In this document: positions 7,714 through 23,849 of the stretch, one piece after another
Layout of the letters: each line of letters opens with the position of its first letter
Numbering within the stretch: position 1 is the first letter of the stretch
Source of the DNA: Pimelobacter simplex
Lineage (GTDB): Bacteria > Actinomycetota > Actinomycetes > Propionibacteriales > Nocardioidaceae
Length of the DNA stretch: 64,000 nucleotides
Assembly (NCBI RefSeq): GCF_900114845.1
Contig: NZ_FOUK01000007.1
Coordinates: 310,001 to 374,000 of the forward strand
Reading direction: 5' to 3'
Position numbers and translations under genes: made by a program
The notes under the pieces: generated by a model
What the model was told of the DNA's origin: nothing
The model's input: only the letters and a program-made list of their open reading frames with translations
Databases searched by the model: none

Positions 7714-9660
7714 TCAGGGCTTTTTGACCACTGCGCCCGGCCACATGCGGTCCACGGCCCGGCGATCACCGATGGAGAAGTCGAACTGCACGAGACGCAG
7801 ATCCGCCAGAAGTTGGGCGGTTTCGTCGTCCAGGTCGGACTCCTCGACGCGCTCGCCGGACGGGTCCAGCATGCGTCCCTGCTGCAGTGCGGTGACGTGC
7901 TCGTGGAGCTTGCCGAGCAGAGCGAGGTACGGCGGCACCGGCGCGTCCGCGACGTCGTACAGCAGGGGCAGGAAGAACGCCGGACTGGTGGTGGGGATCG
8001 TGCGGGGGCGGTTGTGCCCCGGCTCGCTGCTCCAGATGAAGAAGGGCGTGCGGTAGAGCGAGATCCCTGCGTTCTCGTGCTTGATCGTCGAGTCGTAGAT
8101 TCCGGGAAGATGGTCGCCGTAGAAGAGGACGATCGTCTTCTCGGGCTTCTTCTCGAGGGTGTCGAGGAACTCGTCCAATGCCTCGTCGGTGTGCTCGAGA
8201 CCCCGTGCGTACTGGCCGATCCGCTTGTCGCCGGTTCCCGAGACGCCGATCGGGTCGTCGTAGTTGTCGTCGACCGGGATGTGGTTCTGCATCGTCACGA
8301 GATTCACCATCAACGGGCGCTCGTGCTCGTCGATCTGCGTGATCACCTCGTCGAAAGCCGAATCGTCCGAGATGTAGGGGTTGTCGTCGATCGTGTCGGT
8401 CTCGCCGATCGTCGTGTCGTGGATGAACGACTGGAAGCCGAAGCGCTCGTACACCTGCTCCCGCTTGTACATCCCCACGCGGTAGGGGTGGATCGCGATG
8501 GCGTCGTGCCCCTGGCCGCGGAACCAGCCGACGGCCGACGGGTAGTCGGCCTGCTCCGGCACGAGCATCTGGTAAGGCGAGAGCATCTGCGGCCGGAACA
8601 GCCCCAGGGACTGGCCGGTCAGGGTCTCGAACTCCATGTTGGCCGTGCCGCCGCCGTACATCTGGGAGAGCATGTGGCCCGACGTCGTGCCCGCCATCCG
8701 GGCGCGGGTGCGCGGGATCGGGTCGTGCTCGAGGTCGAAGCCCTGCAGCTCGGTGGGATCGGAGAACGACTCACTGAGCACGATCACCACGTTGGTGTCG
8801 GCGAGCGATCCGGTGCGCCCGGCGTTGGTGCGCGCGGCCAGTCGCTCGTAGCGGTCGGCGATCTCGTCCATCCGCGCGGCGTCGTAGTCCTTCGGCTTCG
8901 CCATCGCGTCGACCGGCATGTTGAAGAGGAAGCCGCCGATGAAGCCGTTGGAGCGGTAGTTGGTCTTCTGGTTCCAGTAGCGCCAGTGCTCGCCGCGCAC
9001 CTCGTACATGCTGCGCCACAGGTTGCCCGGCTGGTTGAAGTGACCGGCCTGGGCGAGCAGCAGCAGCGCGACGACGCCCACCAGGACGCGGCTTCCGGCC
9101 AGGAGCCAGGCATGCGGCCGGCGCAGGTCGCGCCAGCGCGGCCGCGGGTAGCGGCGCGCCATCCGGCGACCGAGCAGCACTCCCCCTACGACCACGCCGA
9201 CGACGGCAGCCACGGCGACCACCAGCAGCGTCGGCGAGACCATCGACGTGAGGAAGCCGGGCTCGCGCAGGAAGTCGACGTCGCTGGGGTAGACCGGCTC
9301 CTCGCGGAACTGGATCTTGACCAGCGTCGCGACACCCACGGCGAGGACGAGCGCGAACACCACGCCGATCGACCACCACAGCCGGCCCAGCACGGCCCAC
9401 AGCAGGCCGAGGAACAGCCAGATCACGAGGGTGTCGACGTAGAAGCCGACGCCGAAGATCAGCTGGTCGCCCAGCCAGCGGATGCTGAACAGGCCGAGCG
9501 TCGAGGCCTGCAGGAGGACCGAGGCGACCACGGCGGCGAGGAGGCTCCCGAGGAAGCCGCGGCGCAGCACCTCACGCGGCGGAGCGGGTGCAGCAGGTTC
9601 GACGACCGTGCCCTCAGGGGGCTCCTCGTCCGCGCGGCGCGCCCGAACGAGAAGGGACAC
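7714..9660 (-). CDS. Membrane sulfatase / LTA-synthase-like phosphoglycerol transferase
   Basis: A 648-residue protein (GTG start) with five or so N-terminal membrane helices followed by an extracellular alkaline-phosphatase-superfamily domain. Metal and nucleophile sites of the LtaS type are visible: VLSESFSD, the catalytic-threonine segment GGGTANMEFETLTG, AIHPYRVGMYKR, and YGDHLPGI near the C terminus. LtaS enzymes move glycerol phosphate onto lipid or polymer anchors outside the cell; the true substrate here could be a teichoic acid or another envelope glycan. The GTG has no clear ribosome site close by, so the exact start is less certain. It lies between leuD and hupB on the same strand. 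Confidence 0.8.
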   Translation of the reverse strand: MSLLVRARRADEEPPEGTVVEPAAPAPPREVLRRGFLGSLLAAVVASVLLQASTLGLFSIRWLGDQLIFGVGFYVDTLVIWLFLGLLWAVLGRLWWSIGVVFALVLAVGVATLVKIQFREEPVYPSDVDFLREPGFLTSMVSPTLLVVAVAAVVGVVVGGVLLGRRMARRYPRPRWRDLRRPHAWLLAGSRVLVGVVALLLLAQAGHFNQPGNLWRSMYEVRGEHWRYWNQKTNYRSNGFIGGFLFNMPVDAMAKPKDYDAARMDEIADRYERLAARTNAGRTGSLADTNVVIVLSESFSDPTELQGFDLEHDPIPRTRARMAGTTSGHMLSQMYGGGTANMEFETLTGQSLGLFRPQMLSPYQMLVPEQADYPSAVGWFRGQGHDAIAIHPYRVGMYKREQVYERFGFQSFIHDTTIGETDTIDDNPYISDDSAFDEVITQIDEHERPLMVNLVTMQNHIPVDDNYDDPIGVSGTGDKRIGQYARGLEHTDEALDEFLDTLEKKPEKTIVLFYGDHLPGIYDSTIKHENAGISLYRTPFFIWSSEPGHNRPRTIPTTSPAFFLPLLYDVADAPVPPYLALLGKLHEHVTALQQGRMLDPSGERVEESDLDDETAQLLADLRLVQFDFSIGDRRAVDRMWPGAVVKKP

Positions 9661-9704
9661 GAGATGAACAGTAGCTGTCCACCTCGTGTCCCTACATCGG
9701 GTTT

Positions 9705-9718
9705 GTCCCCTAGGGGAC
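9705..9718. terminator. Small palindrome downstream of leuD
   Basis: A perfect 14-bp palindrome, GTCCCCTAGGGGAC, lies 5 bases beyond the leuD stop, followed on the minus strand by AAACCC. It could be a weak terminator or a processing site between leuD and the sulfatase gene; it has no loop, so the hairpin would lose its central pairs. Confidence 0.35.
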
Positions 9719-9723
9719 GGAGA

Positions 9724-10317
9724 TCACGCGTGCTGGGTGACCGGCTTCCACGACGGCCGGCCCGACTCGTACGCCGCGATGTCGGCATCGTGGCCGAGCG
9801 TGATGCCGATGTCGTCGAGCCCCTCGAGCAGGCGCCAGCGCGTGTAGTCGCCGATCTGGAAGGTGGCCTCGATGTCGCCGGCCTTCACCGTGCGGGCCTC
9901 GAGATCGACGGAGACCTCGGCGCCCGGGTCGGCCTCGAGGTAGGCCCAGATCCGCTCCACGTCGGCCTCGTCGAGCTGGCCCGCGACCAGCCCGGCCTTG
10001 CCGGAGTTGCCGCGGAAGATGTCGGCGAAGCGGGCCGAGAGGACGACCTTGAAGCCGTAGTTCTGCAGCGCCCAGACGGCGTGCTCGCGCGAGGAGCCGG
10101 TGCCGAAGTCGGGGCCGGCGACGAGCACCGAGCCCGCGGCGTACGGCTCCTGGTTGAGCACGAACTCGGGGTCGTTGCGCCAGGCCGCGAAGAGCCCGTC
10201 CTCGAAGCCCGTGCGGGTCACGCGCTTGAGGTAGACCGCCGGGATGATCTGGTCGGTGTCGACGTTGCTGCGTCGCAGCGGGACGCCGACGCCGGTGTGG
10301 GTGGTGAACTTCTCCAT
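9724..10317 (-). CDS. leuD: 3-isopropylmalate dehydratase small subunit
   Basis: LeuD is the swivel-domain partner of LeuC in the isomerisation of 2- to 3-isopropylmalate in leucine synthesis. The 197-residue protein has the expected sequence [27 protein letters not shown], the substrate loop [19 protein letters not shown] and normal length. It follows leuC by 14 bp and must be co-transcribed. Control by the divergent NdgR-type repressor is expected. Confidence 0.97.
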
Positions 10318-10331
10318 GGTCAGGCTCCCTT

Positions 10332-11744
<1,413 letters not shown>

Positions 11745-11796
11745 GACTCGCTCCTCCTCGTTCGTGTCATCGACGGCACCACTGCCGTCAACCAAG

Positions 11797-11842
11797 TGGG
11801 AGCCTACTCTTGCATCCCAGGATCCGAGACGGCAGTATTGCC
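11797..11842. promoter_or_regulatory. Candidate control region between leuC and ndgR
   Basis: The 100-bp divergent gap holds two small inverted repeats: TGGGA (11797-11801) with TCCCA (11815-11819), and GGCAgtatTGCC at 11831-11842 just before the ndgR ATG. Either could bind NdgR, as homologous regulators control their own gene and leuCD. This rests on position and symmetry only. Confidence 0.4.
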
Positions 11843-11844
11843 AT

Positions 11845-12567
11845 ATGGACAACTCGAGCGGCGTCGGCGTACTCGACAAGGCGGCTCTGGTGCTCACCGC
11901 ACTGGAGTCCGGCCCGGCCACCCTGGCAGGCCTCGTGGCCGGCACGGGCCTGGCCCGCCCGACGGCGCACCGGCTGGCCGTCGCCCTCGAGCACCACCGT
12001 CTCGTGGCCCGCGACATGCAGGGCCGCTTCGTCCTCGGCCCGCGTCTCGCCGAGCTGTCCGCCGCCGCCGGCGAGGACCGTCTCCTCGCCACCGCCGGCC
12101 CGGTGCTCGCCCGCCTGCGCGACATCACCGGCGAGTCCGCCCAGCTGTGGCGGCGCCAGGGCGACCACCGCGTCTGCGTGGCCGCCGCCGAGCGCCCCTC
12201 CGGCCTGCGCGACACCATCCCCGTCGGCTCCCAGCTGACCATGCGCGCCGGCTCCGCCGCCCAGGTCCTGCTCGCCTGGGACGACCCGGAGCGCATCCAC
12301 CGCGGCCTGCAGAACTCCGCCTTCTCCGCCGCCGAGCTCTCCGCCATCCGCCGTCGCGGCTGGGCGCAGTCGGTCGGCGAGCGCGAGCAGGGCGTCGCCT
12401 CGGTCTCGGCCCCCGTCCGCTCCCCCGGCGGCAAGGTGATCGCCGCCGTGTCGGTGTCCGGGCCGCTCGAGCGGCTCTCGCGGCAGCCGGGACGGATGCA
12501 CGCGCCCGCGGTGCTCGCGGCGGCCGAGCGGCTGTCGGAGTCGCTGCGGCGGGCGGCTGCGGAGTAG
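11845..12567 (+). CDS. ndgR: IclR-family regulator of leucine biosynthesis (NdgR/LtbR type)
   Basis: A 240-residue IclR protein: N-terminal winged helix-turn-helix ([14 protein letters not shown] ... [20 protein letters not shown]) and a C-terminal effector domain ([33 protein letters not shown] in outline). Divergent orientation from leuCD is the arrangement known for NdgR of Streptomyces and LtbR of Corynebacterium, which repress leuCD and influence other amino acid genes. The start at 11845 matches the family; an upstream in-frame ATG at 11737 would overlap leuC. Function follows from family and synteny. Confidence 0.88.
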
Positions 12568-12587
12568 TTCACTTCTGTCGCGCTGGT

Positions 12588-12623
12588 GCGTGAGTTTCGC
12601 CGGTCGACCGGCGAAACTCACGC
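12588..12623. repeat. 36-bp perfect palindrome
   Basis: Arms GCGTGAGTTTCGCCGGTC and GACCGGCGAAACTCACGC meet at a central GTCGAC. It starts 20 bases after the ndgR stop. The AGTTTC-n-CCG / CGG-n-GAAACT design resembles the 32-bp palindromes further along, so it may be a diverged member of the same family. A part copy, CGTGAGTTTCAGCGGTCA, follows at about 12650. Confidence 0.85.
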
Positions 12624-12852
12624 TTGACCGATGAAGTTCCGTCGGTCCAGCGTGAGTTTCAGCGGTCAGGTTCGGGCGGTGGACGGGTGCTGCGCGGCCG
12701 GCACGGGTGCGCGGACGACGAGCGCACGGCGGGCGGCGATCTGCGAGCATCCCCGCGGCGGGCACGCCGTCCCAGACCGTCGCGCGCTGGCCAGATCTCG
12801 CGGCTGAGCCGACGAAACCGCCGGTTGGCGCACGGAATTCCCTATGCCCACC

Positions 12853-12884
12853 GGCAGTTTCACCGCCTAGGCGGTGAAACTGCC
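12853..12884. repeat. 32-bp dispersed palindrome, copy 1
   Basis: Arms GGCAGTTTCACCGCCT and AGGCGGTGAAACTGCC meet at a central CTAG. The 32 bases are identical to those at 12976-13007 and 60268-60299. CTAG is normally rare in such GC-rich DNA. Confidence 0.92.
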
Positions 12885-12975
12885 CGCGCCCGCGCCGCAG
12901 AACGACGCTCCGCGGCGGGTGCGCTACTGGGCCGACGAAACTGGCGGTGAGCGCACGGAACTCCCTATGCCCACC

Positions 12976-13007
12976 GGCAGTTTCACCGCCTAGGCGGTGA
13001 AACTGCC
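12976..13007. repeat. 32-bp dispersed palindrome, copy 2
   Basis: Identical to copy 1, 123 bp downstream, embedded in the second ~80-bp direct repeat and ending 15 bases before the ogt stop codon. Confidence 0.92.
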
Positions 13008-13021
13008 CGCAAGGCCGCAGC

Positions 13022-13522
13022 CTAGAACAACGCGTCCTGCAGCGGCTCCGACTCCAGCTCGAGCAGCAGCTGCTTGCGGTCCAGCCCGCCGGCGTAGCCG
13101 GTGAGGGTCCCGTTGGCGCCGATCACCCGGTGGCACGGGATGACGATGGGGATCGGGTTGGCGCCGTTGGCGGTGCCGACCGCGCGCGAGGCGGCGTTGG
13201 TCTTGCCGAGGCGCGCCGCGATGTCGCCGTACGACGCGGTCTCGCCGTAGCCGATGCCCAGCAGCTGGGCCCACACCGAGCGCTGCCAGGCGCTGCCGGC
13301 GGGCGCGAGGGGGAGGTCGAACTCGTGGCGGTCGCCGGCGAAGTACTCGGTGAGCTGGCGCGCGGCCGCGACGAGCACCGGCGTGTCGGGGTCCTCGGGG
13401 CCGATCGGGCGGGCGCCGTCGCGGAAGGGGGAGAACTCGATGGCGGTGATCGCGCCGTCCTGCTCGACCAGGCGCAGCGGTCCGATGGGCGATTCGATGA
13501 CGGTCCACATGGTTGTGCTCAT
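13022..13522 (-). CDS. ogt: Methylated-DNA--protein-cysteine methyltransferase
   Basis: A suicide repair protein that moves the methyl group of O6-methylguanine to its own cysteine. The active site IPCHRVIG gives Cys130; the N-terminal ribonuclease-like domain and the WQRSVWAQLLGIGYGETASYGDIA helix-turn-helix (written across residues 79-102) are normal. ATG 13522 overlaps the ada-alkA stop (ATGA), which supports translational coupling. The next ATG at 13510 is an alternative. The protein carries no extra domain. Confidence 0.93.
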   Translation of the reverse strand: MSTTMWTVIESPIGPLRLVEQDGAITAIEFSPFRDGARPIGPEDPDTPVLVAAARQLTEYFAGDRHEFDLPLAPAGSAWQRSVWAQLLGIGYGETASYGDIAARLGKTNAASRAVGTANGANPIPIVIPCHRVIGANGTLTGYAGGLDRKQLLLELESEPLQDALF

Positions 13523-14991
13523 CCTTCCAACGACGTCCAGAGGTGCAGGAGGGCGTAGGAGCGCCACGGCGCCCATGCCTCCGGATCGATGACCGCGCCC
13601 TCGTGCCGGGCCAGCGCGTGGCGGACGCCGACGTCGGTCGGCAGCCAGATGTCGGGGTGGCCGAGGGCGCGCAGGGCGATGTAGTCGGCCGTCCACGGGC
13701 CGATGCCGGGCAGCGCGATCAGGTCACGGCGGACGTCGCCGCGGTCGGGGCCGCGGTCGAGCGCCAGGTCGCCGGCGGCGAGCGCCGCGGACAGCCCGAT
13801 CAGTGCCCGGCCGCGGGCGCGCGGCATCTTGAAGTCGGTCGGGTCGAGTGCCGCGACGGTCGCCGCCGACGGGAACAGGTGGGTCAGGCCCTCGACCGTC
13901 GTCGTGACGGGCCGGCCGTGGGCGGCGACGAGGCGGGCGGCGGCGGTGCGGGCGGCGACGACGGTGACCTGCTGGCCCAGCACCGCGCGGACGGCGATCT
14001 CGGCGCCGTCGACGTGTCCCGGGACGCGCAGGCCCGGCCGCGCCGCGACGAGCGGTCGCAGCACGGGATCGGCGGACAGGTGCCCGTCGACGGCGACTGG
14101 GTCGGCGTCCGCGTCGAGCATCGCGCGCATCCGCGCGAGTGCCGCCGCCGTGTCGCGCAGGTCGTCGAGCACCAGCCGCAGCGGCACGTACGACGTCCCG
14201 ACGTCGTCCAGGTCGGTGAGGTCGACACGCGCGACGCCGGGCCCGTGCGGCAGGTCGATCGTCCGCGCGTACCAGCCGCTGCCGTCGGCACCGACCTCGG
14301 CGACCTCGATGCCCGGGATCGCCCGCGCGGCGAGGAAGCGCAGCAGCGCACTTCCCCGGAACGGCGTCCGGACGGCGATCCGCAGGTCGATCGCGCCGGG
14401 GACCGGGCCGGGCGCGGGTGTCTTGCGCCCGCGCAGCTGGCTGGGCGTCGCGTCGTACACCTCGAGCATGGTGTCGTTGAACTGCCGCACGCTCGAGAAG
14501 CCCGCCGCGAACGCGACGTCGGCGAGGCTGAGCGTCGTGCTCTCGACGAGCGCCCGCGCGGTCTGGGCGCGCTGCGTGCGCGCGAGCGCGAGCGGCCCGG
14601 CCCCGAGCTCGGTCGTGAGCAGCCGGCCCAGGTGGCGCGACGTGTAGCCGAGCCGCGTCGCGAGCCCCTCGACGCCCTCGCGGTCGACGACGCCGTCGGC
14701 GATGAGGCGCATGGCCCGCCCGGCGACGGTGGCGGCGAGGTTCCACTCGGGGCTGCCCGGCGTCGCGTCGGGCAGGCAGCGCTTGCACGCGCGGTAACCG
14801 GCGGTCTGGGCGGCAGCGGCCGTGCGGTGGAAGGAGACGTTGCGGGAGGCCGGCGTCCGGGCCGGGCAGGACGGGCGGCAGTAGATGCCCGTCGTGCGGA
14901 CCGCGGTGTAGAAGACCCCGTCGAAGCGGCGGTCGCGCGACTGCACGGCGGTGTAGCAGCGCTCGAAGTCGAGGCTCTCGGCGGTCGTCAT
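13519..14991 (-). CDS. Ada-type methyl sensor fused to AlkA 3-methyladenine glycosylase
   Basis: A 490-residue fusion. Residues 1-80 are the Ada zinc/methyl-acceptor domain with Cys38, Cys42, Cys69 and Cys72, the same numbering as E. coli Ada. Residues ~82-185 form an AraC-type helix-turn-helix pair. Residues ~195-490 are the AlkA glycosylase with HhH motif LPGIGPWTADYIALRALG and catalytic Asp453 in LPTDVGVRHAL. It therefore senses methylphosphotriesters, likely activates its own operon, and removes alkylated bases, with ogt supplying the O6-methylguanine repair that E. coli Ada carries in its C-terminal half. Confidence 0.93.
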   Translation of the reverse strand: MTTAESLDFERCYTAVQSRDRRFDGVFYTAVRTTGIYCRPSCPARTPASRNVSFHRTAAAAQTAGYRACKRCLPDATPGSPEWNLAATVAGRAMRLIADGVVDREGVEGLATRLGYTSRHLGRLLTTELGAGPLALARTQRAQTARALVESTTLSLADVAFAAGFSSVRQFNDTMLEVYDATPSQLRGRKTPAPGPVPGAIDLRIAVRTPFRGSALLRFLAARAIPGIEVAEVGADGSGWYARTIDLPHGPGVARVDLTDLDDVGTSYVPLRLVLDDLRDTAAALARMRAMLDADADPVAVDGHLSADPVLRPLVAARPGLRVPGHVDGAEIAVRAVLGQQVTVVAARTAAARLVAAHGRPVTTTVEGLTHLFPSAATVAALDPTDFKMPRARGRALIGLSAALAAGDLALDRGPDRGDVRRDLIALPGIGPWTADYIALRALGHPDIWLPTDVGVRHALARHEGAVIDPEAWAPWRSYALLHLWTSLEG

Positions 14992-15104
14992 GCGTCCATC
15001 CTGCCCGGGCGCACCGACACTCTCTCGCGGAAATCGGACATGACAGCCGAGCGCCCCGCGACAGCCGCGAGCGCGGAGCCGCCGGATCTGCGACGCTGGG
15101 CGGC

Positions 15105-15560
15105 ATGGCGGATGCTCCCCTGAACCCGATCGACCTGCTGCTGAAGTCTCAGCAGGCCGCGCTCAAGCTCACCAGCGACGTGCTGCGGACCGTGCGCGAC
15201 ACCGCCGTCACCGGCATCACCCAGCCCGACGAGCTCGCCCAGCAGGTCGGCGACCTGGCCGGCGCCGTCGCCGGGCTGGCCACCGGCATCACCGGCCTCG
15301 CCGGCGCGACGGCCCAGCCGCTCCAGGACTTCATCGTCCGCCAGCGCGAGCTCGCCGACACCGTCCACACGCTCGCCGAGGCCCAGGCCGAGCTCGCCGG
15401 CGTCGTCGCCTCGCTCGCCGAGCGCCATGCCGAGGCCGTCGCCGCGCTGGAGAGGCTCACCGCTCCGGTGTTCGCGGTCGTGGGCACCGACCCGACGCCG
15501 CCGCGGACGCGGGCGGCCAAGCAGAGCGCCGCGGCGCGGTCGAAGAACCGGACGGACTAG
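15105..15560 (+). CDS. Small alpha-helical protein, phasin-like in character
   Basis: A 151-residue protein of unknown function. Apart from the polar C-terminal tail (PPRTRAAKQSAAARSKNRTD) it is almost wholly amphipathic helix rich in Ala, Leu, Thr and Gly, with VGDLAGAVAGLATGITGLAG in the centre and no membrane segment. Such composition is seen in phasins that coat polyhydroxyalkanoate granules and in some surface-binding proteins; this is only a resemblance. It stands alone and divergent from ada-alkA. Its stop TAG shares the tetramer CTAG with the stop of the converging downstream gene. Confidence 0.65.
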   Translation: MADAPLNPIDLLLKSQQAALKLTSDVLRTVRDTAVTGITQPDELAQQVGDLAGAVAGLATGITGLAGATAQPLQDFIVRQRELADTVHTLAEAQAELAGVVASLAERHAEAVAALERLTAPVFAVVGTDPTPPRTRAAKQSAAARSKNRTD

Positions 15561-16270
15561 TCCGCGGGAGCGCCGCCGGCCGGCGGGACCGGACCGATCG
15601 GATCGACCGGGTCGGCGTCGCCGGGGACGGCGTGCCTCGGCGCACCGGGGATGGCAACGTAGCTGTCGTCGCGCCGGACCGCGACGGCGACGCCCTCGAT
15701 GCCGCTCGCCGCGACCGGTCCGAGAACGCGTGAGTCGACCGCCCGGGCGCGGTTGTCACTGAGCACGAACACGTCGCCCGCCGGCACGTCGACCGCCGCG
15801 AACGGCTCCGACGGCAGCGCGGCGAGGTAGTCGTCGGTACTGGGTCGGCCGTCGACGAGCACCCCTGCGCACGTTCCGTCAGGGCGAGCCGGGCAGCTCA
15901 CCGTCGTACCGCCGACCGCGATGACCCGGGTCAGCAGCGGCACGGGCACCCCCGGCACCGAGATCCGCACGACATCGCCCTGCTCGGCGGCGAGGTCGCG
16001 GTGGAACGTCACCGACTCCCCCATGGCGATCGTCGGCGCCATGCCCGCGCTCGGCTGGAGCTCGTCGTAGTAGGGACCGGCGCCGATCCGCCCGGCGCCC
16101 CAGGAGACCCCCAGGCCGACGGCGACCACCCCCGCCGCGATCGCCGGACGCCGCCGGCGGGTGCGGCGCGCCCCGCGCAGAGCCCGGGCCGCGAGGTCGA
16201 CCGGCGTGCTGGTGTCGCGCCCCGCGACGGCGGCGAGCGTGCGGATCTCGTTCTCGACCGACGTGGTCAT
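15557..16270 (-). CDS. Signal-peptidase-I-like protein lacking the catalytic dyad, paired with an ECF sigma factor
   Basis: A 237-residue protein. Residues 1-42 are soluble and basic at the end, residues ~43-60 form one membrane helix, and the rest resembles the S26 signal peptidase fold. Box B reads PSAGMAPTIAMGE and box E reads VLSDNRARAVDSRVLGPV. However, the nucleophile serine (S-M-x-P-T) is Gly76 and the general-base lysine (K-R) is Thr114 in LLTRVIAVGG, so peptidase activity is not expected. It overlaps the upstream sigma-factor gene by ATGA, the usual place for an anti-sigma factor. An anti-sigma or sensor role is inference. Confidence 0.7.
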   Translation of the reverse strand: MTTSVENEIRTLAAVAGRDTSTPVDLAARALRGARRTRRRRPAIAAGVVAVGLGVSWGAGRIGAGPYYDELQPSAGMAPTIAMGESVTFHRDLAAEQGDVVRISVPGVPVPLLTRVIAVGGTTVSCPARPDGTCAGVLVDGRPSTDDYLAALPSEPFAAVDVPAGDVFVLSDNRARAVDSRVLGPVAASGIEGVAVAVRRDDSYVAIPGAPRHAVPGDADPVDPIGPVPPAGGAPAD

Positions 16271-16791
16271 GACATCGCCTCCAATGAGTCGCCGAGGCGG
16301 TCGCGCAGGCTGCCCAGGGCACGCGAGAGGTTGCTGCGGACAGTGCCGGCGGCGCAGCCCATGATGCGCGCGGTCTCGGCCTCGCTGAGGTCCTCCACGA
16401 CGCGCAGCACGACCGTCGCCCGCTGCTTCGGCGGCAGGCTGGCCAGCAGTACGTCGAGCCGGCGCCGCGCCGCGAGGGCGTCGGCCGGGTCCGGAGCGGG
16501 TGCCCCGCGCTCGGGCTCGACGTCCTCGGCCGGGGTGGGCACGAGGTGGCGGCGGCGCCCGCGGTCCCGGGCGAGGTTGACCAGGATGGTGCGGGTGTAG
16601 GCCTCGGGCGTCTCGGTCCGGTGCCAGTGCCGGGCGAGCCGGGTCAGCGCCTCCTGCAGCGCGTCCTCGGCCTCACCGTGGTCGAGGACCAGCAGCCGGG
16701 CGAACCGGAGGAGCCGATCGCCCGAAGTGGCCACGAACGCGGTGAACGCGGCCTCGTCCTGGTCTCTCACACCCAGGTAGACGAGAGCCAC
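16267..16791 (-). CDS. ECF RNA polymerase sigma factor, SigE-family style
   Basis: A 174-residue sigma factor with region 2 (AFVATSGDRLLRFARLLVLD ... DALQEALTRLARHW) and region 4 (LPPKQRATVVLRVVEDLSE followed by the recognition helix around AAGTVRSNLSRAL). The linker between them is short and proline-rich. Start: GTG 16791 gives the full frame, but GTG 16770 (VRDQDEAAFTAF) is also possible, because neither has a strong ribosome site. It is translationally coupled to the S26-like membrane protein that follows, forming a sigma/regulator pair. Confidence 0.88.
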   Translation of the reverse strand: MALVYLGVRDQDEAAFTAFVATSGDRLLRFARLLVLDHGEAEDALQEALTRLARHWHRTETPEAYTRTILVNLARDRGRRRHLVPTPAEDVEPERGAPAPDPADALAARRRLDVLLASLPPKQRATVVLRVVEDLSEAETARIMGCAAGTVRSNLSRALGSLRDRLGDSLEAMS

Positions 16792-16811
16792 GACGGAATC
16801 GTTGCAAAGGA

Positions 16812-16870
16812 GCGGCCGACGACCGTCACGACCGGGCCCCGAGGTCTCCGGTCGTGACGGCGTCGGCCGC
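16812..16870. terminator. Long hairpin downstream of the M14 peptidase gene
   Basis: Arms at 16812-16835 and 16848-16870 pair over 23 bp with a single bulged A, around a 12-base loop. It lies 21 bases after the peptidase stop and before the sigma gene, both on the minus strand, so it probably ends the peptidase transcript and separates the two units. Confidence 0.7.
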
Positions 16871-16890
16871 CCGCTACCTGTTCGACGAGA

Positions 16891-19800
16891 TCAGCGGCGG
16901 ACCACCTTCAACCTCGTCGTCGTCGACGACCGCGTGAGGTTCGCGCTGCCCAGGTAGGTCACCTGCACCGTGTGCTTGCCCCGACGCAGCTTCGGCAGGA
17001 ACAGCGTCACCTTGCCGTTGGCGGCGACGGCGCGCGAGGCGACCAGGCGGCCGTCGACCCGGACCAGCACGGTGCCGGAGATCTTGGCGCCGGGCGCCGC
17101 GACCACGACCTTGAGCTTGGCCCGCTTCTTCGGGGTCACCGTGGCCGTCTTGACCTGGGCGGTGACCGTCGACGCGGCCTTGACCACCTTGAGGACGGCG
17201 CCCGGCGAGACGCTGGGCGCGAAGGCGGCGTCGCCGCCGTACTCGGCGGTCAGCACCTTGGTGCCGGCCTTGGGGAAGGCGCCGACCGGGATCGAGGCGA
17301 CACCGCTGTCGTCGATCTCGCCCGAGCCGACCACGACGTCGCCGTCGCGCAGGGTGACGACGCCGGAGGGCGCCGGCTGGTCGCCGGCTCCGGTGGCCGT
17401 CACCTCGACCTGCGCGGTGACGCCGCGCGCGCCGACCTTGACGGTCGCCGGGCTCAGGCTGAGGGACGTCGCGCTGGACGCGAGCGGCTCCTCGTACCCG
17501 ACCTCGGCCTTCCAGGTGCGGTAGTTGCGGTCCTTGCCCGGCACGAAGTGCCGCTCGACGTTGCCGCGGCTGTCGACGGTGATCCAGCGGACCTCGGCGC
17601 CGGCGTCGACCTTCAGCCGCTCACCGAGCGTGTTGCGGAGACCGTCGGCGTCGTAGCGCTCCGAGCCGAGGTTGGGCACGGTGCCGTCGAGCGTGTAGAA
17701 CACGGCCGCCGGCTCGTTCGTCTCGAACCGGACGTTGACCTTGCCCGGTGCGGACGGCGCCGCGGTCACCGCGACCGTCGAGACCGGCGGCACGTCGTCC
17801 CGCTCGTGGTCGAGCGCGACCCGGGCCATCTCGACGAGGCCGTTGGCGAACTCCTGGCTCTCCGCGTGGGCGGAGGCTCCGTTGGGGTTCTCGAGGTTCT
17901 CGAACGGCGGCTGGAAGGTCGTGCCGACCTCGAAGTCCCAGGCGTAGATGCCGTACTTGTACCAGAGCATGTCGCCGGAGTTCCCGGCTGCCGAGTAGAG
18001 CACGTCGACGACCTGGCCGGTCCGGGCGGGCGTGACGCTCAGGCCACGGTGGCGCTTGATGGCGGTCAGGATCCGCGAGGAGGCGCCCCAGAACAGGCCT
18101 TCCTCCTCGAGGGTGGGCACCGGCGCGGTCTCGCGACCGGCCGCCTTGTAGGACGCCGGCGACCACATGAAGTAGTTGCCGGAGCTGTGCACGTTCATCG
18201 AGAACGTCATGTTGGGGTGCGCCGCGACCCAGTCGACGTTGTTCGCCTCGGGCTCCGAGAGCTCGGCCGGGCCGGCCGACGTCCCGCTGGTGCAGCTCGT
18301 GGTGGACGCGCCGCTGTAGCCGTCGAACGCGCTGTAGAGGTCGTAGTTGCGGTTGACGTCGACGCCCCACGAGTTGCGCGAGCCGAAGTCGCCGGTGCTC
18401 TCGACGCCGCAGTAGCGCGTCATGTTCTTGCGCTGGCTGGCGAAGTCGTAGAAGGAGTAGTGGCCGCCGTCGGGGTTGACCGACGGGAGGATCCAGATCT
18501 CCAGGTTGTCGACGAGGTCACGGGTGCCCGCGTGGGTGGCGTAGTTGCGGAGCAGCCGCTCGGCGGTCTCGATCGTCACCAGCGGCGGCACCCACTCGCG
18601 CGCGTGCTCCTGTGCGTAGTAGAAGACGCCGGGCTTCGAGCCGTCGCGCACCTTGCCGATCTTGATGGCGTAGACCTGCTGCGGGTCGCGGGAGATGGAC
18701 GCCGGCGCGTTGAGGCCGTCGGACAGTGCCACCGGGGCGGTCGCCGGGACGACGCCCGCTCCGGCGTCGCCGCGGTAGGTGTAGGCCTTGACCAGTGCGG
18801 CCGCGGCGGGGGTGGCGTTGATCGCCGCGACGATCTGGGCGGACGTGCTCGTGGCGACGCTGCCGGCGTCGGTGGCCGACGAGACGGTGATCGCCTTGTC
18901 GCTGACACCGATGCTCAGCAGGGCGTTCGACGCCGCCGGGTGGACGACCTCGACGGTGATTCCGTTGCCGCCCTCGTGCCCCCAGGCCACCGAGTCGAGG
19001 CCGAAGCGCTGCGAGATCGCCGTGGGGTTGTTCGCCGTCGGGCCGACCATCGCCTGCGCGAGGCGCCGGTAGCCGTTGGTCTTGTAGGGCAGCTCGACGA
19101 TCTCGGCGAGCTCGGGGTAGGTCAGCGCGAGCTGCTTGATCCGGTCGTAGAGCTGGGTCGGGTCGAGGTAGGACTGGATGAAGTCCTGCTGGTAGCCGGG
19201 GCCCTTGAACGGGTCCGGCTCGCCCTCGGTGGTGGGCAGCCAGTCACGGACCTTGAGGATCGCGACGTCGCCGCTGGCGCTGGTGATCCGCACCCGGTCG
19301 GGCCGCGTCGTCAGGCCAGTCGAGCTGGCGCCGGTGTGGTACATGTACACGCCCGCGTCGACGAACCGGGAGATGTTCTGCGTGCCGCCGCTGCCGAAGG
19401 CCGTGCCGGGACCGCTGTCGCGCTCGACGGTGAGAGTGGTGACGTTCGCGCCGTTGGCGACCTGCGCCTCGACGGCGAGGACCGGCGTCCCGAACGAGGT
19501 GTAGTAGTCGGCGCGGAGGATCTTGACGTCGCTGGTGTCGGGGTCGGTCGCCTCGTCGTCCAGCGCGTCGGCCGTCTGCTGGTGGGCCGCGATGGTGGCG
19601 TCGCGCTCGGCGACCGCGGCCTCGCTGTCCTCGGCGGCGAGCAGCGTCCCGCCGACCGCGAAGCCGAGCGCCTTGAGCTGCTTGACCTCGCCGGGCGTGA
19701 CGACGGCGTGGACGGCGAGGCCGTCCTCCTCCTGGTGGACGCCGTGGTCGAGGTCGACGCCGGTCGCGACGAGCCGGTCGAGCTCAGCCGTTCCGGGCAC

Positions 19801-19992
19801 GACGATCTCGACGACCTCGGGCGTCTCGTCGGCGCTGCGCTCGAGGACCGGGTCGTCCGGCGCCGCCTGGGCGCGGGGCCCGGTCGCGGCCGTCGACTCG
19901 CTCGGCATGACGCCGACCACGAGCCCGAACAACGCCAGTCCGGCAGCGGACGCCGCCCAGCGCTTCCTTCTCAGATGTGTGGATGCAGACAC
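16891..19992 (-). CDS. Secreted zinc carboxypeptidase (M14) with C-terminal Ig-like domains
   Basis: A ~1033-residue exported metallopeptidase. GTG 19992 is chosen because GAGGG lies 6 bases upstream; it gives a signal peptide (basic LRRKRW, hydrophobic core, cleavage near STAATG). The M14 site is complete: H463-x-x-E466 in QEHAREWVPP, NPDG at 506-509, third ligand His602 in MNVHSSGN, and catalytic Glu688 in WDFEVGTTF. After residue ~740 come a chitobiase-C-like segment (FYTLDGTVPNLGS) and two Ig-like repeats ending in a basic tail. It likely trims peptides or wall-linked proteins outside the cell. The gene is monocistronic. Confidence 0.9.
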   Translation of the reverse strand: MSASTHLRRKRWAASAAGLALFGLVVGVMPSESTAATGPRAQAAPDDPVLERSADETPEVVEIVVPGTAELDRLVATGVDLDHGVHQEEDGLAVHAVVTPGEVKQLKALGFAVGGTLLAAEDSEAAVAERDATIAAHQQTADALDDEATDPDTSDVKILRADYYTSFGTPVLAVEAQVANGANVTTLTVERDSGPGTAFGSGGTQNISRFVDAGVYMYHTGASSTGLTTRPDRVRITSASGDVAILKVRDWLPTTEGEPDPFKGPGYQQDFIQSYLDPTQLYDRIKQLALTYPELAEIVELPYKTNGYRRLAQAMVGPTANNPTAISQRFGLDSVAWGHEGGNGITVEVVHPAASNALLSIGVSDKAITVSSATDAGSVATSTSAQIVAAINATPAAAALVKAYTYRGDAGAGVVPATAPVALSDGLNAPASISRDPQQVYAIKIGKVRDGSKPGVFYYAQEHAREWVPPLVTIETAERLLRNYATHAGTRDLVDNLEIWILPSVNPDGGHYSFYDFASQRKNMTRYCGVESTGDFGSRNSWGVDVNRNYDLYSAFDGYSGASTTSCTSGTSAGPAELSEPEANNVDWVAAHPNMTFSMNVHSSGNYFMWSPASYKAAGRETAPVPTLEEEGLFWGASSRILTAIKRHRGLSVTPARTGQVVDVLYSAAGNSGDMLWYKYGIYAWDFEVGTTFQPPFENLENPNGASAHAESQEFANGLVEMARVALDHERDDVPPVSTVAVTAAPSAPGKVNVRFETNEPAAVFYTLDGTVPNLGSERYDADGLRNTLGERLKVDAGAEVRWITVDSRGNVERHFVPGKDRNYRTWKAEVGYEEPLASSATSLSLSPATVKVGARGVTAQVEVTATGAGDQPAPSGVVTLRDGDVVVGSGEIDDSGVASIPVGAFPKAGTKVLTAEYGGDAAFAPSVSPGAVLKVVKAASTVTAQVKTATVTPKKRAKLKVVVAAPGAKISGTVLVRVDGRLVASRAVAANGKVTLFLPKLRRGKHTVQVTYLGSANLTRSSTTTRLKVVRR

Positions 19993-20223
19993 GATCAACC
20001 CTCGGGGTGGGGGACGGGGGGTCGCACTCCTCAGGACGTGAGAGACATCACAAGAAGTGTGCGCTCACCTAAGCGGCAGCCCTTCGCGGGCGTCAACCAC
20101 GAGATCCGAAAACCGCCTTACGACTGGACGGATGGCGCACGAGAGCCCGGTCGAGAGGACAAGGAGTCCAGCACAGGGCCCCGATTCGCCGGTCGGTCGA
20201 GACGATTGGCCGGAAAACGCATT

Positions 20224-20250
20224 CGGGCCCGGTCCTGAGGACCGGGCCCG
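20224..20250. terminator. Terminator after tRNA-Glu
   Basis: Perfect 12-bp arms CGGGCCCGGTCC / GGACCGGGCCCG with a 3-base loop, 6 bases beyond the tRNA-Glu 3' end, followed on the minus strand by GAATGCGTTTTCC. A classic intrinsic terminator for the tRNA transcript. Confidence 0.88.
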
Positions 20251-20256
20251 ACTCTG

Positions 20257-20329
20257 TACCCCCGACCGGATTCGAACCGGCGCTACCTACGTGAGAGGCA
20301 GGCGTGCTAGGCCGCTACACAACGGGGGC
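20257..20329 (-). tRNA. tRNA-Glu (anticodon CTC)
   Basis: A 73-nt cloverleaf read on the minus strand. Acceptor GCCCCCG pairs with CGGGGGT (a G-T pair at position 1:72), followed by discriminator A; CCA is not encoded. The anticodon loop CTCTCAC gives CTC (Glu, GAG codons). The T arm is CCGGTTCGAATCCGG. A terminator hairpin follows at 20224-20250. Confidence 0.95.
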
Positions 20330-20438
20330 ATGTCGCCGGATCTCCCCGAGGGGGTCTCTCAGCGACCTGCGGAACTCTAGCGATCTCGCCTCCCGGACTC
20401 CAAATCGGCGTCCGTCTCGGCCTTCTCGCGAGAACTCG

Positions 20439-20510
20439 CTGGTCTACTAGGACTCGAACCTAGACTAACTGGACCAGAACCAGTCGTGCTGCCAATTACA
20501 CCATAGACCA
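20439..20510 (-). tRNA. tRNA-Gln (anticodon CTG)
   Basis: A 72-nt cloverleaf on the minus strand. Acceptor arms TGGTCTA/TAGACCA, anticodon loop TTCTGGT giving CTG (Gln, CAG codons), T arm CTAGGTTCGAGTCCTAG, discriminator G, CCA not encoded. It lies about 110 bp upstream of tRNA-Glu on the same strand. The pair sits next to gltX, whose enzyme charges tRNA-Glu and, in most actinobacteria, also misacylates tRNA-Gln for later amidation. Confidence 0.95.
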
Positions 20511-20555
20511 CTGCTGCATCGGCCCGATCCCGAAGGACCCGGCCGACGAGGAACA

Positions 20556-21539
20556 CTACACGCGGCCCCGCCGCGCCTCCAAAATGGCCCCACTGGTGGC
20601 GGGATCCGTGCGGTCCGCGACGCCCAGCCGGCGGGCCGCGAGCACCGCCAGGAGCAGGTAGCTCAGCGACTGCGTGAGGGTCACCGGAATGGCCCACCAG
20701 GTGCCGCCGGTGGGGTTCAGGGCGCTGGTCATGTCGCCGAACGCGAGGGCCAGCCCGAACGCGAAGAAGTTGTTGAGGACGTGCATCGCGATGCCGGCCT
20801 CGAGGCCGCCGGTGAGCAGCACGAGCAGGCCGGCGACGAGACCGAAGGCGAGCCGGTCGAAGAAGATCGGGACGTCCTGGCCGAGGCCGTGCGCGAGCGC
20901 GAACAGCACCGCCGGGACGACGACCGCGACCGCCGCTCCCGTCCGGGCGCCGAAGCCGGCGGCGAGCCCGCCGAAGGCCTGCGCGAGGTAGCCCCGGAAC
21001 ACGAACTCCTCCCCCGCCGCCTGGAGCGGGGTGAGCAGCACGATGACGAGCAGGAAGTCGCGCACGGTCGACGTCCAGGGGTTGAGCTGGTCGCCGACGT
21101 CGACGGAGCCGGCGCCCTGGTCGGGCAGCACGGTCGAGACGAGCAGGGTCAGCGCGAGCGAGACCACCGCGATGCCCAGGCACGCGGCGAACCAGCGCCA
21201 GCGGAAGGCGCCGACCACCGACGCGACCCACCCCGGCCGCTGCTCGTGCAGGGCGCGAGCGACCAGCCACACCATCGGGATCGCCACCGCCCAGCCGAGG
21301 TTGACGAGAGCGAGGAAGGCGGGCGTCGTGGGATCACCGGAGAGGTGGTCGACCGCCTCCTTCGAGGTGTCGCCCCCGGCCACCAGGATCGTCGTCACGA
21401 CGACGCTGAGGACCACCTGGCCCATGAAGAAGAGCACCACCAGGGCGGGGATCCCGGCGAACGGGCGCCAGGCCCCCGCCGGCCCGAGCCGGTGGAGCTC
21501 GTCGTACCGCAGGCGCAGCGCGCCGTCAGCCGAGGGCAC
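20556..21539 (-). CDS. CPBP-family intramembrane metalloprotease
   Basis: A 327-residue polytopic membrane protein with about eight helices. The CPBP (Abi/CAAX-like) glutamyl-protease motifs are present: EE-x3-R in [13 protein letters not shown]-x3-H in LFALAHGLG, and HVLNN. The substrate is unknown. GTG 21539 overlaps the end of gltX by 14 bp, so it is translated from the same transcript as gltX; why these are linked is not evident. Confidence 0.85.
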
Positions 21540-22989
21540 GCTGCAGTCGTCCGAGGCTGCGGTCGCGACCGAGCAGCTCGAGCGACTCGAACAGCGGCGG
21601 CGAGATGCGCTTGCCGGTCACCGCGACCCGGACCGGGCCGAAGGCGTTGCGGGGCTTGAGGCCCAGGCCCTCGACGAGCGCGTCCTGGAGCGCGGTCTGG
21701 ATCGCGTCGGTCGACCACGTGGTCAGCGCGGCGAGCGCGTCGTGGGCGGCCTGGACGACGGGCCGGCCGGTCTCGCCGAGCTGCTTCGCGGCGTCCTCGG
21801 GGTCGACGGCGAAGTCGGCCTCGTCGACGAACAGGAACGCGAGCAGGCCGCTGGCCTCGGCCAGCTTGTTGATCCGCTCGGCCACCAGCGGCATCGCGAG
21901 CTCGAGGAGCTGGGCGTCGGCGTCGCTGACCGGGTCGCTGACGACGCCGTCGCGCTTGAGGAAGGGCAGCACCCGGTGGGTGATCTCGTCGGTCGAGAGC
22001 CGGCGCATGTGCGCGGCGTTGATCGCGTCGCACTTCTTCAGGTCGAAGCGCGCGGGGTTGGGGACGACGTCGGTGACGTCGAACGCCTCGACCATCTCGT
22101 CGAGCGTGAACACGTCGCGGTCGGCCGCGATCGCCCAGCCCAGCAGGGCGAGGTAGTTGAGCAGGCCCTCGGGCAGGTAGCCCTGGTCGCGGTAGGCCAG
22201 CGCGTGCGCCTCGGGGTCGCGCTTGGAGAGCTTCTTGTTGCCCTCGCCCATCACGTAGGGGAGGTGGCCGAACTGCGGCGTCGCCTTCGCGATGCCGACC
22301 TCCTCGAGCGCCGCGTAGAGCGCGATCTGGCGCGGGGTCGACGACAGGAGGTCCTCGCCGCGCAGGACGTGGGTGATCTCCATCAGCGCGTCGTCGACCG
22401 GGTTGACGAGCGTGTAGAGCGGGTCGCCGTTGGCACGGGCCAGCGCGAAGTCCGGCACGAACTCGGTCTCGAAGCTCACCTCGCCGCGGACCAGGTCGTT
22501 CCAGGTGATCGAGCCGTCGGGCATCCGGAACCGGACGACGGGCTTGCGACCCTCGGCCACGAAGGCGTCGACCTGCTCCGGGGTGAGCTCGCGGCAGAAG
22601 CCGTCGTACCCCTGGACCTTGGAGCCGGCGGCCTTGCGGCGCGCGGTCGCCTCGTCGGTGGTGCAGTAGCAGTCGTAGGTGTGGCTGCTCTCCTTGAGCC
22701 GCGCGAGGGCGTCAACGTAGAGGTCGCTGCGCTCGCTCTGGAAGTACGGCGCGTGGGGGCCGCCGACCTCGGGGCCCTCGTCCCAGTCGAGACCCAGCCA
22801 GCGCATCAGGTCGAGGATCGAGCGGAGCGACTCGTCGGTGCTGCGCTCCTTGTCGGTGTCCTCGATGCGGAACACGAACGTGCCGCCGTGGTGGCGGGCG
22901 AACGCCCAGTTGAAGAGGGCGGTGCGGATCATGCCGACGTGGGGGCTGCCCGTCGGGGACGGGGCCATCCGGACTCGGACGTTGCTCAT
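21526..22989 (-). CDS. gltX: Glutamyl-tRNA synthetase
   Basis: GluRS charges tRNA-Glu. The 487-residue class I enzyme has the HIGH-type motif in [20 protein letters not shown] near the N terminus and the KMSKS equivalent KLSKR at residues 253-257, plus [11 protein letters not shown]. Length is normal for a bacterial discriminating or non-discriminating GluRS. ATG 22989 overlaps the upstream FAH-family stop (ATGA). Its partner tRNA genes lie just downstream. Confidence 0.97.
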
Positions 22990-23798
22990 GCGCGTGCTTC
23001 CACCTTGTTCGTGAGGGTTCCGAGGCCCGCGATCGAGATCTCGACCTCGTCACCGACCTCCATGGGTCCGACACCCTCGGGGGTACCGGTGAGGATGACG
23101 TCGCCCGGCAGCAGCGTCATCACGCTCGACACGTGGGCGACGAGCGCGGGGACGTCGAAGATCATGTCGGCCGTCGTGCCGTCCTGGACGACGTCGCCGT
23201 TGAGGAAGGTCTGCACCCGGCGGCCCTGGGCGAAGTCGTTCGGGTCGAGATCGGTCTCGATCCACGGGCCCAGCGGGCAGAACGTGTCGAAGCCCTTGGC
23301 CCGGGTGAACTGACCGTCGGCCTTCTGCAGGTCGCGCGCCGTCACGTCGTTGGCGATCGTGTAGCCGTGGATGACGTCGGTGGCCTGCTCGACCGGGACG
23401 TCGCGGCAGATCCGCCCGATGACGACGGCGAGCTCGCCCTCGTAGTGGACGTTCGACGACTGCGCCGGGTAGCGGATGACGTCGCCGGGGCCGACCACGC
23501 TCGTGTTCGGCTTGAGGAACATCATCGGCTCGGACGGCACCTCGTTGCCGAGCTCGGCCGCGTGGGCCGCGTAGTTGCGGCCGATGCCGACGACCTTGCT
23601 GCGCGGCAGGACCGGCGCCAGCAGGCGGATGTCGTCGAGCCGGTACTCCTTCTCGAGCAGCTTGATGCCGACGTAGAGCGGGTCGCCGGCGAGGCCGACG
23701 ACCACGGCGTCGTCCCCGGGCTGGCCGTACTCGTCGAGGTCGCCGGTGAGGACGCCGTACGACGGCTCCTCCCCTGTGGTGAAACGGACGATGCGCAC
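22986..23798 (-). CDS. Fumarylacetoacetate hydrolase family protein
   Basis: A 270-residue FAH-fold enzyme (GTG start). The catalytic core holds the metal-binding acids in [10 protein letters not shown] and [10 protein letters not shown] and the substrate loop [16 protein letters not shown]. The family includes hydrolases, decarboxylases and hydratases/isomerases of oxo-acids, so the reaction is open. The close linkage to gltX, with an ATGA overlap, is common in actinobacteria and does not inform function. Confidence 0.85.
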
Positions 23799-23849
23799 GC
23801 CGCGAGCCTATCGGGCGCGGCGTGCGCCACCGTCATCGTCAGCCGGCGC

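What the first reader, a model, noticed from the sequence alone, without database searches (positions are those of the whole stretch)
15557..16791. Signal-peptidase-like pseudoenzyme encoded with an ECF sigma factor
The product at 15557-16270 keeps the S26 fold signatures (P-S-x-x-M-x-P-T and S-D-N-R-x5-D-S-R) but has Gly76 for the nucleophile serine and Thr114 for the general-base lysine. Both losses are read directly from the DNA (ggc and acc codons). It overlaps an ECF sigma gene by ATGA, where an anti-sigma factor is expected, and has a soluble N-terminal arm, one membrane helix and the dead peptidase fold outside. The pattern suggests a signal-peptide- or peptide-binding sensor controlling a sigma factor.
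Basis: partly seen in the sequence, partly recalled or inferred. Interest (0 to 1): 0.7.

Follow-up and report, generated by a model that had tools for sequence, protein, structure and literature searches.

The report
Dead signal peptidase beside sigma factor
An actinobacterium encodes, coupled to a transcription switch, a membrane protein whose outer half is a signal peptidase that has lost its cutting residues, most likely reused as a sensor that controls the switch.

Summary
The ORF at 15557-16270 (-) is a signal-peptidase (S26) protein with Gly76 and Thr114 where Ser and Lys belong, and no lysine at all. It overlaps a SigE-family ECF sigma gene by ATGA.

It is not a one-off. Eight full-length members were found, this one included: six in Nocardioides-like genomes, two outside the order. 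All eight follow a SigE-like sigma gene. Seven lack both Ser and Lys, with varying substitutes. The eighth keeps both and branches first, so an active ancestor that died once is likely. dN/dS is 0.2-0.5 in five pairs. Of 59 other S26 proteins, 55 keep Ser and Lys; the other four sit in pilus-like clusters, and none of the 59 lies beside such a sigma gene.

The Arg-rich N-terminal arm resembles, in five of eight members, arms of other SigE-family partners. An exact TGCAAC-N15-CTCGT[CT] site lies 9-10 bases before all eight sigma genes, suggesting autoregulation and a sigma start at 16770.

Best reading: a membrane anti-sigma-like regulator with a dead signal peptidase as sensor. The closest solved fold is the pseudo-peptidase SipA. 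Sigma binding, ligand and regulon are untested.

The parts
16801..16806 (-). -35-like element TGCAAC before the sigma gene
   Evidence: full pattern TGCAAC-N15-CTCGT[CT] exact in 8 of 8 members; 0 of 16000 dinucleotide shuffles of the upstream regions match it. The pattern was drawn from six members; L194 and L195 came later and also have it
16780..16785 (-). -10-like element CTCGTC, 15 bases from the -35-like element, 9 bases before the proposed start codon
   Evidence: only exact match in the 64-kb window
16267..16770 (-). ECF sigma factor gene, SigE family (TIGR02983); proposed GTG start at 16770 instead of 16791
   Evidence: 143.4 bits for the ORF from 16791; start placed by the promoter-like site and the aligned start codons of the eight sigma genes
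16267..16270 (-). ATGA overlap of sigma stop and partner start
   Evidence: ATGA in 6 of 6 Nocardioides-like members, TGATG and ATGACTAG in the other two
15557..16270 (-). partner gene: arm, one predicted membrane helix, S26 domain without Ser and Lys, proline-rich tail
16148..16270 (-). residues 1-41: Arg-rich arm, putative sigma-binding segment
   Evidence: profile of 14 other SigE-family partner arms of the same genome gives 22.1 bits; 0 of 500 full shuffles and 2 of 500 shuffles that keep the Arg cluster reach it
16085..16147 (-). residues 42-62: predicted membrane helix, N-in by the positive-inside rule
   Evidence: hydropathy, weak; inference
15677..16075 (-). residues 66-198: S26 (type I signal peptidase) domain
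   Evidence: PF10502 and TIGR02227; model of residues 61-205 pLDDT 75.5; Foldseek E 2.0e-7 to SipA 4n31
16043..16045 (-). codon GGC, Gly76 in the column of the nucleophile Ser
15929..15931 (-). codon ACC, Thr114 in the column of the general-base Lys
15557..15646 (-). residues 209-237 and stop: tail beginning GAPxxxxP, shared by 8 of 8 members
   Evidence: invariant G209 A210 P211 P216; GAPxxxxP after the last D[SG][RT] in 0 of 59 other S26 open frames

Best explanation
The pair is an autoregulated, translationally coupled ECF sigma / membrane anti-sigma-like system. Residues 1-41 of the partner stay in the cytoplasm and hold the sigma factor at the membrane (inferred). One helix crosses the membrane (predicted, weakly). 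The outer domain is a type I signal peptidase that lost Ser and Lys but kept its fold (shown by profile and model). It most likely works as a sensor: binding of a ligand or protein at the old peptide cleft or docking face changes the partner or exposes it to proteolysis, which frees the sigma factor (inferred). The sigma factor then transcribes its own operon from TGCAAC-N15-CTCGTC (inferred from the conserved site). The sensor probably evolved from an active signal peptidase already tied to the sigma gene; the basal member G1010 still has the Ser/Lys pair.
For: All 8 members follow a SigE-like sigma gene with overlapping or touching stop and start codons; 0 of the 50 loci that hold the 59 other S26 rows has a match to this sigma factor. 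In 215 genus genomes the sigma profile at E<=1e-50 hits exactly the 6 genomes that hold the partner. 7 of 8 lack both Ser and Lys; 55 of 59 other S26 rows keep both. The eight form one clade (100/99) and the seven dead ones a clade inside it (99/95). dN/dS 0.21-0.49 in five pairs. Arms of 5 of 8 members score 18.0-22.1 bits with a profile of 14 other partners, above all 500 full shuffles each. In the window's genome 15 of 20 SigE-family sigma genes (>=138 bits), this one included, are followed by an arm-helix protein, with varied outer parts. Promoter-like site exact in 8 of 8. Domain model pLDDT 75.5; best solved match is the pseudo-peptidase SipA (E 2.0e-7; Z 14.6, rmsd 2.8 over 128).
Against: Sigma-arm contact was not tested. 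The full-length model is poor (pLDDT 47.3). The arm likeness rests largely on the Arg cluster and helix start: when these are kept and only the head is shuffled, 2, 5, 6, 2 and 4 of 500 reach the score in the five better members, 22 of 500 in L044, and L043 (221 of 500) and L194 (142 of 500) show none. The membrane helix is weaker than in other partners. Gln72 replaces Val/Ile of 55 of 55 dyad-bearing rows, so the cleft has changed, also in G1010. G1010 keeps Ser and Lys, so deadness is not needed everywhere. No regulon beyond the operon was found. No known anti-sigma domain is recognised.
Confidence: 0.55

Rival explanations
1. The S26 domain is only a structural plug: a folded outer domain that resists site-1 proteolysis until envelope damage unfolds it. 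It has no ligand and its cleft is a relic.
For: The Val/Ile before the catalytic motif is replaced by Gln in all 8 members; partners of other SigE-family sigma factors carry other outer parts.
Against: dN/dS in the S26 part is 0.15-0.48 in five pairs, and Ser74, Met77, Arg115-Val116 and Asp179-Ser180-Arg181 are kept in 8 of 8. Conservation of the fold alone could explain part of this.
Confidence: 0.21
2. The partner is not an anti-sigma factor. It is a secretion or assembly helper, like SipA of pili, or a subunit that docks on the housekeeping signal peptidase, merely made together with the sigma factor.
For: Best structural match is SipA; S26 proteins with a changed Ser/Lys pair occur in pilus-like clusters of the same order.
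Against: Coupling to a sigma gene in 8 of 8, arm likeness in five of eight, and no pilin or sortase gene seen by eye among the ORFs at 8000-24000.
Confidence: 0.18
3. The protein is still a protease with a different catalytic pair.
For: Ser74 is invariant in 8 of 8 and the basal member G1010 has an intact Ser/Lys pair.
Against: Three members, the window's included, have no lysine anywhere. The Ser that supports the catalytic Lys (recalled as Ser278 of E. coli LepB) is Ala in 5 of 6 Nocardioides-like members. Substitutes vary in the Ser column (G, A, V) and the Lys column (T, R, L, S).
Confidence: 0.04
4. A decaying gene or a sequencing error.
For: Both catalytic residues are changed.
Against: Open frames in 8 genomes, dN/dS 0.21-0.49 in five pairs, shared promoter-like site and coupling.
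Confidence: 0.02

Closest known systems
SipA of Streptococcus pyogenes (PMC4049620; passages and section 9 read)
   Same: Signal-peptidase fold with Ser and Lys replaced (there Asp and Gly); closest solved structure to the model. Its cleft held a peptide in the crystal.
   Different: SipA is needed for pilus polymerisation; the passages read mention no sigma factor. Different substitutes.
RsiP/sigmaP and RsiV/sigmaV of Bacillus (PMC8844934, PMC4183432; titles and abstract openings seen)
   Same: Membrane anti-sigma factors with an outer sensor part; signal peptidase enters the pathway (RsiP: title; RsiV: recalled).
   Different: There an active signal peptidase cuts the anti-sigma factor; here the anti-sigma-like protein itself carries a dead signal peptidase.
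Partners of other SigE-family (TIGR02983) sigma factors in the same genome
   Same: Short Arg-rich arm, one hydrophobic stretch, gene start at or overlapping the sigma stop.
   Different: Other outer parts, e.g. a PASTA domain (L082) and a sub-threshold Gmad2 match (L086). No S26 domain in the six validly scanned with Pfam; the other eight were only read by eye.
Class II anti-sigma factors such as CnrY, and RsbN of BldN (PMC7406223, PMC8103513; passages read)
   Same: Anti-sigma factors outside the common class I domain; class II domains are short, RsbN is membrane-anchored and from Streptomyces.
   Different: No sequence link was tested.
Type I signal peptidase (S26), e.g. the canonical gene L001 of the same genome
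   Same: Profile and fold.
   Different: Ser and Lys intact there, behind a ribosomal-protein-L19-like frame by eye; no match to this sigma factor in the locus.

Membership tests
Type I signal peptidase, S26 | S26 profile and fold | tested here: met
   PF10502 59 bits, TIGR02227 53.8 bits; the first 24 Foldseek matches in the PDB are signal peptidases or SipA
Type I signal peptidase, S26 | catalytic Ser | tested here: not met
   Gly76; 7 of 8 sigma-linked members lack it, 57 of 59 other S26 rows have it
Type I signal peptidase, S26 | catalytic Lys | tested here: not met
   Thr114; no lysine in the protein; 55 of 59 other S26 rows have it
Type I signal peptidase, S26 | cleaves signal peptides | not testable with these tools
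   needs an assay
SigE-family ECF sigma factor (TIGR02983) | score over the curated cut-off | tested here: met
   143.4 bits against 141.55, for the ORF from 16791; the sigma factors of L194 and L195 score 123.5 and 125.9, under the cut-off
ECF anti-sigma factor | gene coupled to the sigma gene | tested here: met
   8 of 8
ECF anti-sigma factor | known anti-sigma domain or zinc motif in the N-terminal part | tested here: not met
   Pfam lists only S26 at E<=10; no Cys or His in residues 1-41
ECF anti-sigma factor | arm shared with other partners of the same sigma family | tested here: inconclusive
   5 of 8 arms beat all 500 full shuffles clearly and L044 narrowly; L043 and L194 do not; keeping the Arg cluster weakens the signal to 2-6 of 500 in the five
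ECF anti-sigma factor | binds and inhibits the sigma factor | not testable with these tools
   no complex prediction and no assay
SipA-like pilus factor | signal-peptidase fold without Ser and Lys | tested here: met
SipA-like pilus factor | lies in a pilin/sortase gene cluster | tested here: inconclusive
   none seen by eye in the ORF list 8000-24000; only four of the window's ORFs were scanned with Pfam

The most novel reading that the evidence does not exclude
A signal peptidase was recruited whole into an anti-sigma factor. In the basal lineage (G1010) it is still catalytic and may cut itself or a client to release the sigma factor. In the Nocardioides lineage it became a decoy receptor that reads the state of protein export: unprocessed signal peptides, or lipopeptides that block the real signal peptidase, fill its cleft and switch on the sigma factor.
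Probability: 0.22. Interest if true: 0.87.

Novelty: new variant of a known kind. Interest (0 to 1): 0.65.

Why it matters
I know of no dedicated sensor that reports the load or the inhibition of signal peptidase through a sigma factor (recall; the listing showed none). Here an enzyme fold forms the outer half of an anti-sigma-like protein, with one living member that still has the catalytic pair and seven that lost it. That makes the step from enzyme to receptor testable by experiment, and suggests how SigE-family sigma systems may acquire new inputs by exchanging the outer domain behind an Arg-rich arm.

Tried and rejected
Full-length structure prediction from 4 sequences gave pLDDT 47.3 and was not used; the domain alone worked. 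A sigma-partner complex was not attempted: the tool folds one chain. Regulon search: exact TGCAAC-N15-CTCGTY gave 13 sites in 6 genomes (reversed-pattern control 5); six are the sites before the sigma genes, the other 7 mostly read like coding sequence by eye. A looser form gave 40 sites against 26 in the control, again with no clear further target; loci of the sites were not all inspected. Upstream regions of the 20 SigE-family sigma genes of the genome show several AAC-spacer-CGT-like sites, so the promoter type may be common to this sigma family. Viral contigs could not be scanned with the 8-row alignment. Plasmids gave only ordinary lepB hits: 6 records, none covering 80% of the query. Relatives of G1010: none of the other 16 of 17 genomes had a full-length member, so the intact form rests on one genome, 91% complete, on a 5.4-kb contig.

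Literature searches listed no paper on a signal-peptidase pseudoenzyme tied to a sigma factor, judged from titles and abstract openings; four lists were capped (20 of 122, 15 of 25, 15 of 300, 15 of 44). The large 2021 ECF classification paper (PMC7826278) is not held, so an earlier mention there cannot be excluded. LepB equivalences other than Ser90 and Lys145 (Ser88, Ser278, Ile86) are recalled. One-off mutation, decay and sequencing error were rejected. My working view that the family was confined to the genus was overturned.

Dropped or weak rows: S26 hits starting after profile position 100 or ending before 180 were left out (number not printed), and 22 of 87 were removed as near-duplicates; the rows were trimmed, so the tail was checked separately on whole frames. 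In one search, 7 rows (4 pilus type, L123, L054, L119) were left out of the tree; they are in the tree. The first arm profile used 18 arms, 4 of which (L034-L037) had come in by likeness to the window's own arm; it was repeated with the 14 neighbourhood-chosen arms and a stricter control, and the membership row and the confidence (0.58 to 0.55) were lowered for that. In one search the first row (L075) was read on a wrong stretch and is void.

Full report
What is there. The minus strand carries, in order, a promoter-like site at 16780-16806, an ECF sigma gene and a partner gene at 15557-16270 that overlaps the sigma stop by ATGA. The sigma ORF scores 143.4 bits against TIGR02983, the SigE family (cut-off 141.55), and the partner scores 59 bits against Peptidase_S26 and 53.8 against signal peptidase I. 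In the partner, Gly76 (GGC) stands in the column of the nucleophile and Thr114 (ACC) in that of the general base. The protein has no lysine at all, so a shifted Ser/Lys pair is excluded. Its E-box is SDNR-x4-DSR, not x5.

Relatives. The window lies in a Nocardioides-like genome: same-genus contigs of 635822 and 84488 bases match named Nocardioides records. A profile of four members searched in 215 genus genomes found six full-length members. The family search (341 genomes, E<=1e-22) found the same six and none in the other 25 genera. Samples of 391 order and 396 phylum genomes added none at over 100 bits. A class sample of 266 genomes added two outside the order, G1142 and G1010. All eight follow a SigE-like sigma gene; junctions are ATGA in six, TGATG in G1142 and ATGACTAG in G1010. 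The sigma factors of G1142 and G1010 score 123.5 and 125.9 bits, under the TIGR02983 cut-off. In the 215 genus genomes the sigma profile at E<=1e-50 hits six genomes, the same six; only 15 candidates per genome were scored and the threshold was my choice. As a control, 0 of the 50 loci that hold the 59 other S26 rows has a match to the window's sigma factor at E<=0.01 (loci reach about 1.5 kb either side), while the three positives included do.

Catalytic columns. In Ser/Lys order the members read G/T (window), A/T (G228), G/R (G042), V/L (G046, G012, G268), A/S (G1142) and S/K (G1010). So 7 of 8 lack both. Of 59 other distinct S26 proteins in the loci held at that time, 55 have both. The four without Lys (L113, L117, L118, L120; the last two also without Ser) lie beside pilin-like frames, with a sortase-like frame in L117, by eye. 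The Ser that supports the Lys (recalled as Ser278 of LepB) is Ala in 5 of 6 Nocardioides-like members and Ser in all 55 dyad-bearing rows. In G1010 that Ser is present, and its single lysine, K119, is the one in the catalytic column.

Evolution. In a maximum-likelihood tree the six Nocardioides-like members form one clade apart from the pilus type. With the two new members the eight form one clade (100/99), the seven dead ones are together (99/95) and G1010 is their sister. The simplest history is an active ancestor already tied to the sigma factor, one loss of catalysis, and drift of the two positions. The intact form rests on one genome (91% complete, 5.4-kb contig; none in 16 relatives), so this is an inference. 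dN/dS is 0.22, 0.33, 0.49, 0.35 and 0.21 in five pairs (a simple method, GC-rich genes), so the dead protein is under selection.

The arm. In the window's genome 29 places match TIGR02983 at E<=1e-20. Of the 20 that score at least 138 bits, 15 (the window's included) are followed, at or overlapping the stop, by a protein with a short arm, an Arg-rich stretch and a hydrophobic stretch. Three more of the 20 have such a protein upstream, found as top matches among 1265 open-frame starts (L076, L080, L088). Outer parts differ: of seven scanned, one has a PASTA domain, one a sub-threshold Gmad2 match, four nothing, and one row was void. A profile of the 14 other downstream arms gives the eight members 22.1, 21.7, 20.3, 19.6, 4.7, 11.7, 2.5 and 18.0 bits (L046, L047, L045, L042, L043, L044, L194, L195). 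None of 500 full shuffles each reaches the score in six of them; 28 do for L043 and 53 for L194. When the Arg cluster and helix start are kept and only the head is shuffled, 2, 5, 6, 2, 221, 22, 142 and 4 of 500 reach it. So five of eight arms resemble those of other partners beyond the Arg cluster, one is doubtful and two are not resolved. An earlier profile of 18 arms gave a like picture, but four of its arms had come in by likeness to the window's arm. No known anti-sigma domain was recognised. The predicted helix is weaker in the family (19-residue means 1.51-1.95) than in the 14 other partners (1.76-3.11).

The promoter. TGCAAC-N15-CTCGT[CT] occurs exactly in 8 of 8 upstream regions, 9-10 bases before the aligned start codon; 0 of 16000 dinucleotide shuffles of those regions have it. 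It was drawn from six members; the two found later have it too. In the window the exact pattern occurs once. It looks like an ECF promoter (family knowledge) and suggests autoregulation by a nearly leaderless message. It also moves the sigma start to GTG at 16770. Elsewhere in the six genomes exact sites are few (7, against 5 in all for the reversed control), so the regulon is unknown.

Fold. The domain model (residues 61-205, four sequences) has pLDDT 75.5 and pTM 0.73. Its best solved match is SipA 4n31, E 2.0e-7, Z 14.6 (rmsd 2.8 over 128 residues); E. coli LepB reaches Z 12.3 (2.9 over 131). SipA is itself a signal-peptidase-like protein without Ser and Lys whose cleft held a peptide in the crystal (PMC4049620, passages and section 9 read). 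In the window family Ser74, Met77, Arg115-Val116 and Asp179-Ser180-Arg181 are kept in 8 of 8, but Gln72 replaces the Val/Ile of all 55 dyad-bearing rows, in G1010 too. A tail beginning GAPxxxxP is shared by 8 of 8 and seen in 0 of 59 others.

Mechanism. Shown: coupling, conserved loss of the dyad, conserved promoter-like site, S26 fold, arm likeness in five of eight. Predicted: one membrane helix, N-in. Inferred: sigma binding by the arm, sensing by the outer domain, release of the sigma factor by binding or proteolysis. Peptide or export-state sensing is the most attractive ligand hypothesis but rests on analogy with SipA; the changed cleft position speaks for a changed ligand.

What is known. 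RsiP is an anti-sigma factor cut by an active signal peptidase (title of PMC8844934); RsiV likewise, as recalled. SipA is a dead signal peptidase in pilus assembly. I found no paper joining the two in eight searches (titles and abstract openings, some lists capped); the main ECF classification paper is not held. I therefore call it a new variant: a known kind of sigma partner with a new, enzyme-derived outer domain.

Noticed in passing
   Followed up: partly
L195:1489-2728 (G1010:C338): A sigma-linked S26 partner with intact Ser, Lys and supporting Ser; possibly an anti-sigma factor with a working signal peptidase.
   Followed up: yes
L199 (G1069:C120:2802-3263): A short S26-like protein with a lipoprotein-like N-terminus and Asn and Gln near the Ser and Lys positions, by eye; perhaps another pseudo-peptidase.
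   Followed up: no
L076, L080, L088 (same genome as the window): Arm-helix proteins encoded upstream instead of downstream of a SigE-family sigma match; top matches of the arm profile.
   Followed up: partly
L081 and L085 (same genome, C5): SigE-family sigma matches inside long open frames of 593 and 621 aa; possibly sigma and partner fused in one chain.
   Followed up: no
15105-15560 (+): A phasin-like ORF, by eye, convergent with the partner gene; a like ORF lies in L005 near the same partner.
   Followed up: no
55466-55933 (+): Another ECF-like sigma match in the window (76 bits, L103), upstream of a biotin-synthase-like frame by eye.
   Followed up: no
13022-14991 (-): Ada/AlkA-like frame followed by an Ogt-like methyltransferase frame, a DNA-alkylation repair pair, by eye.
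   Followed up: no
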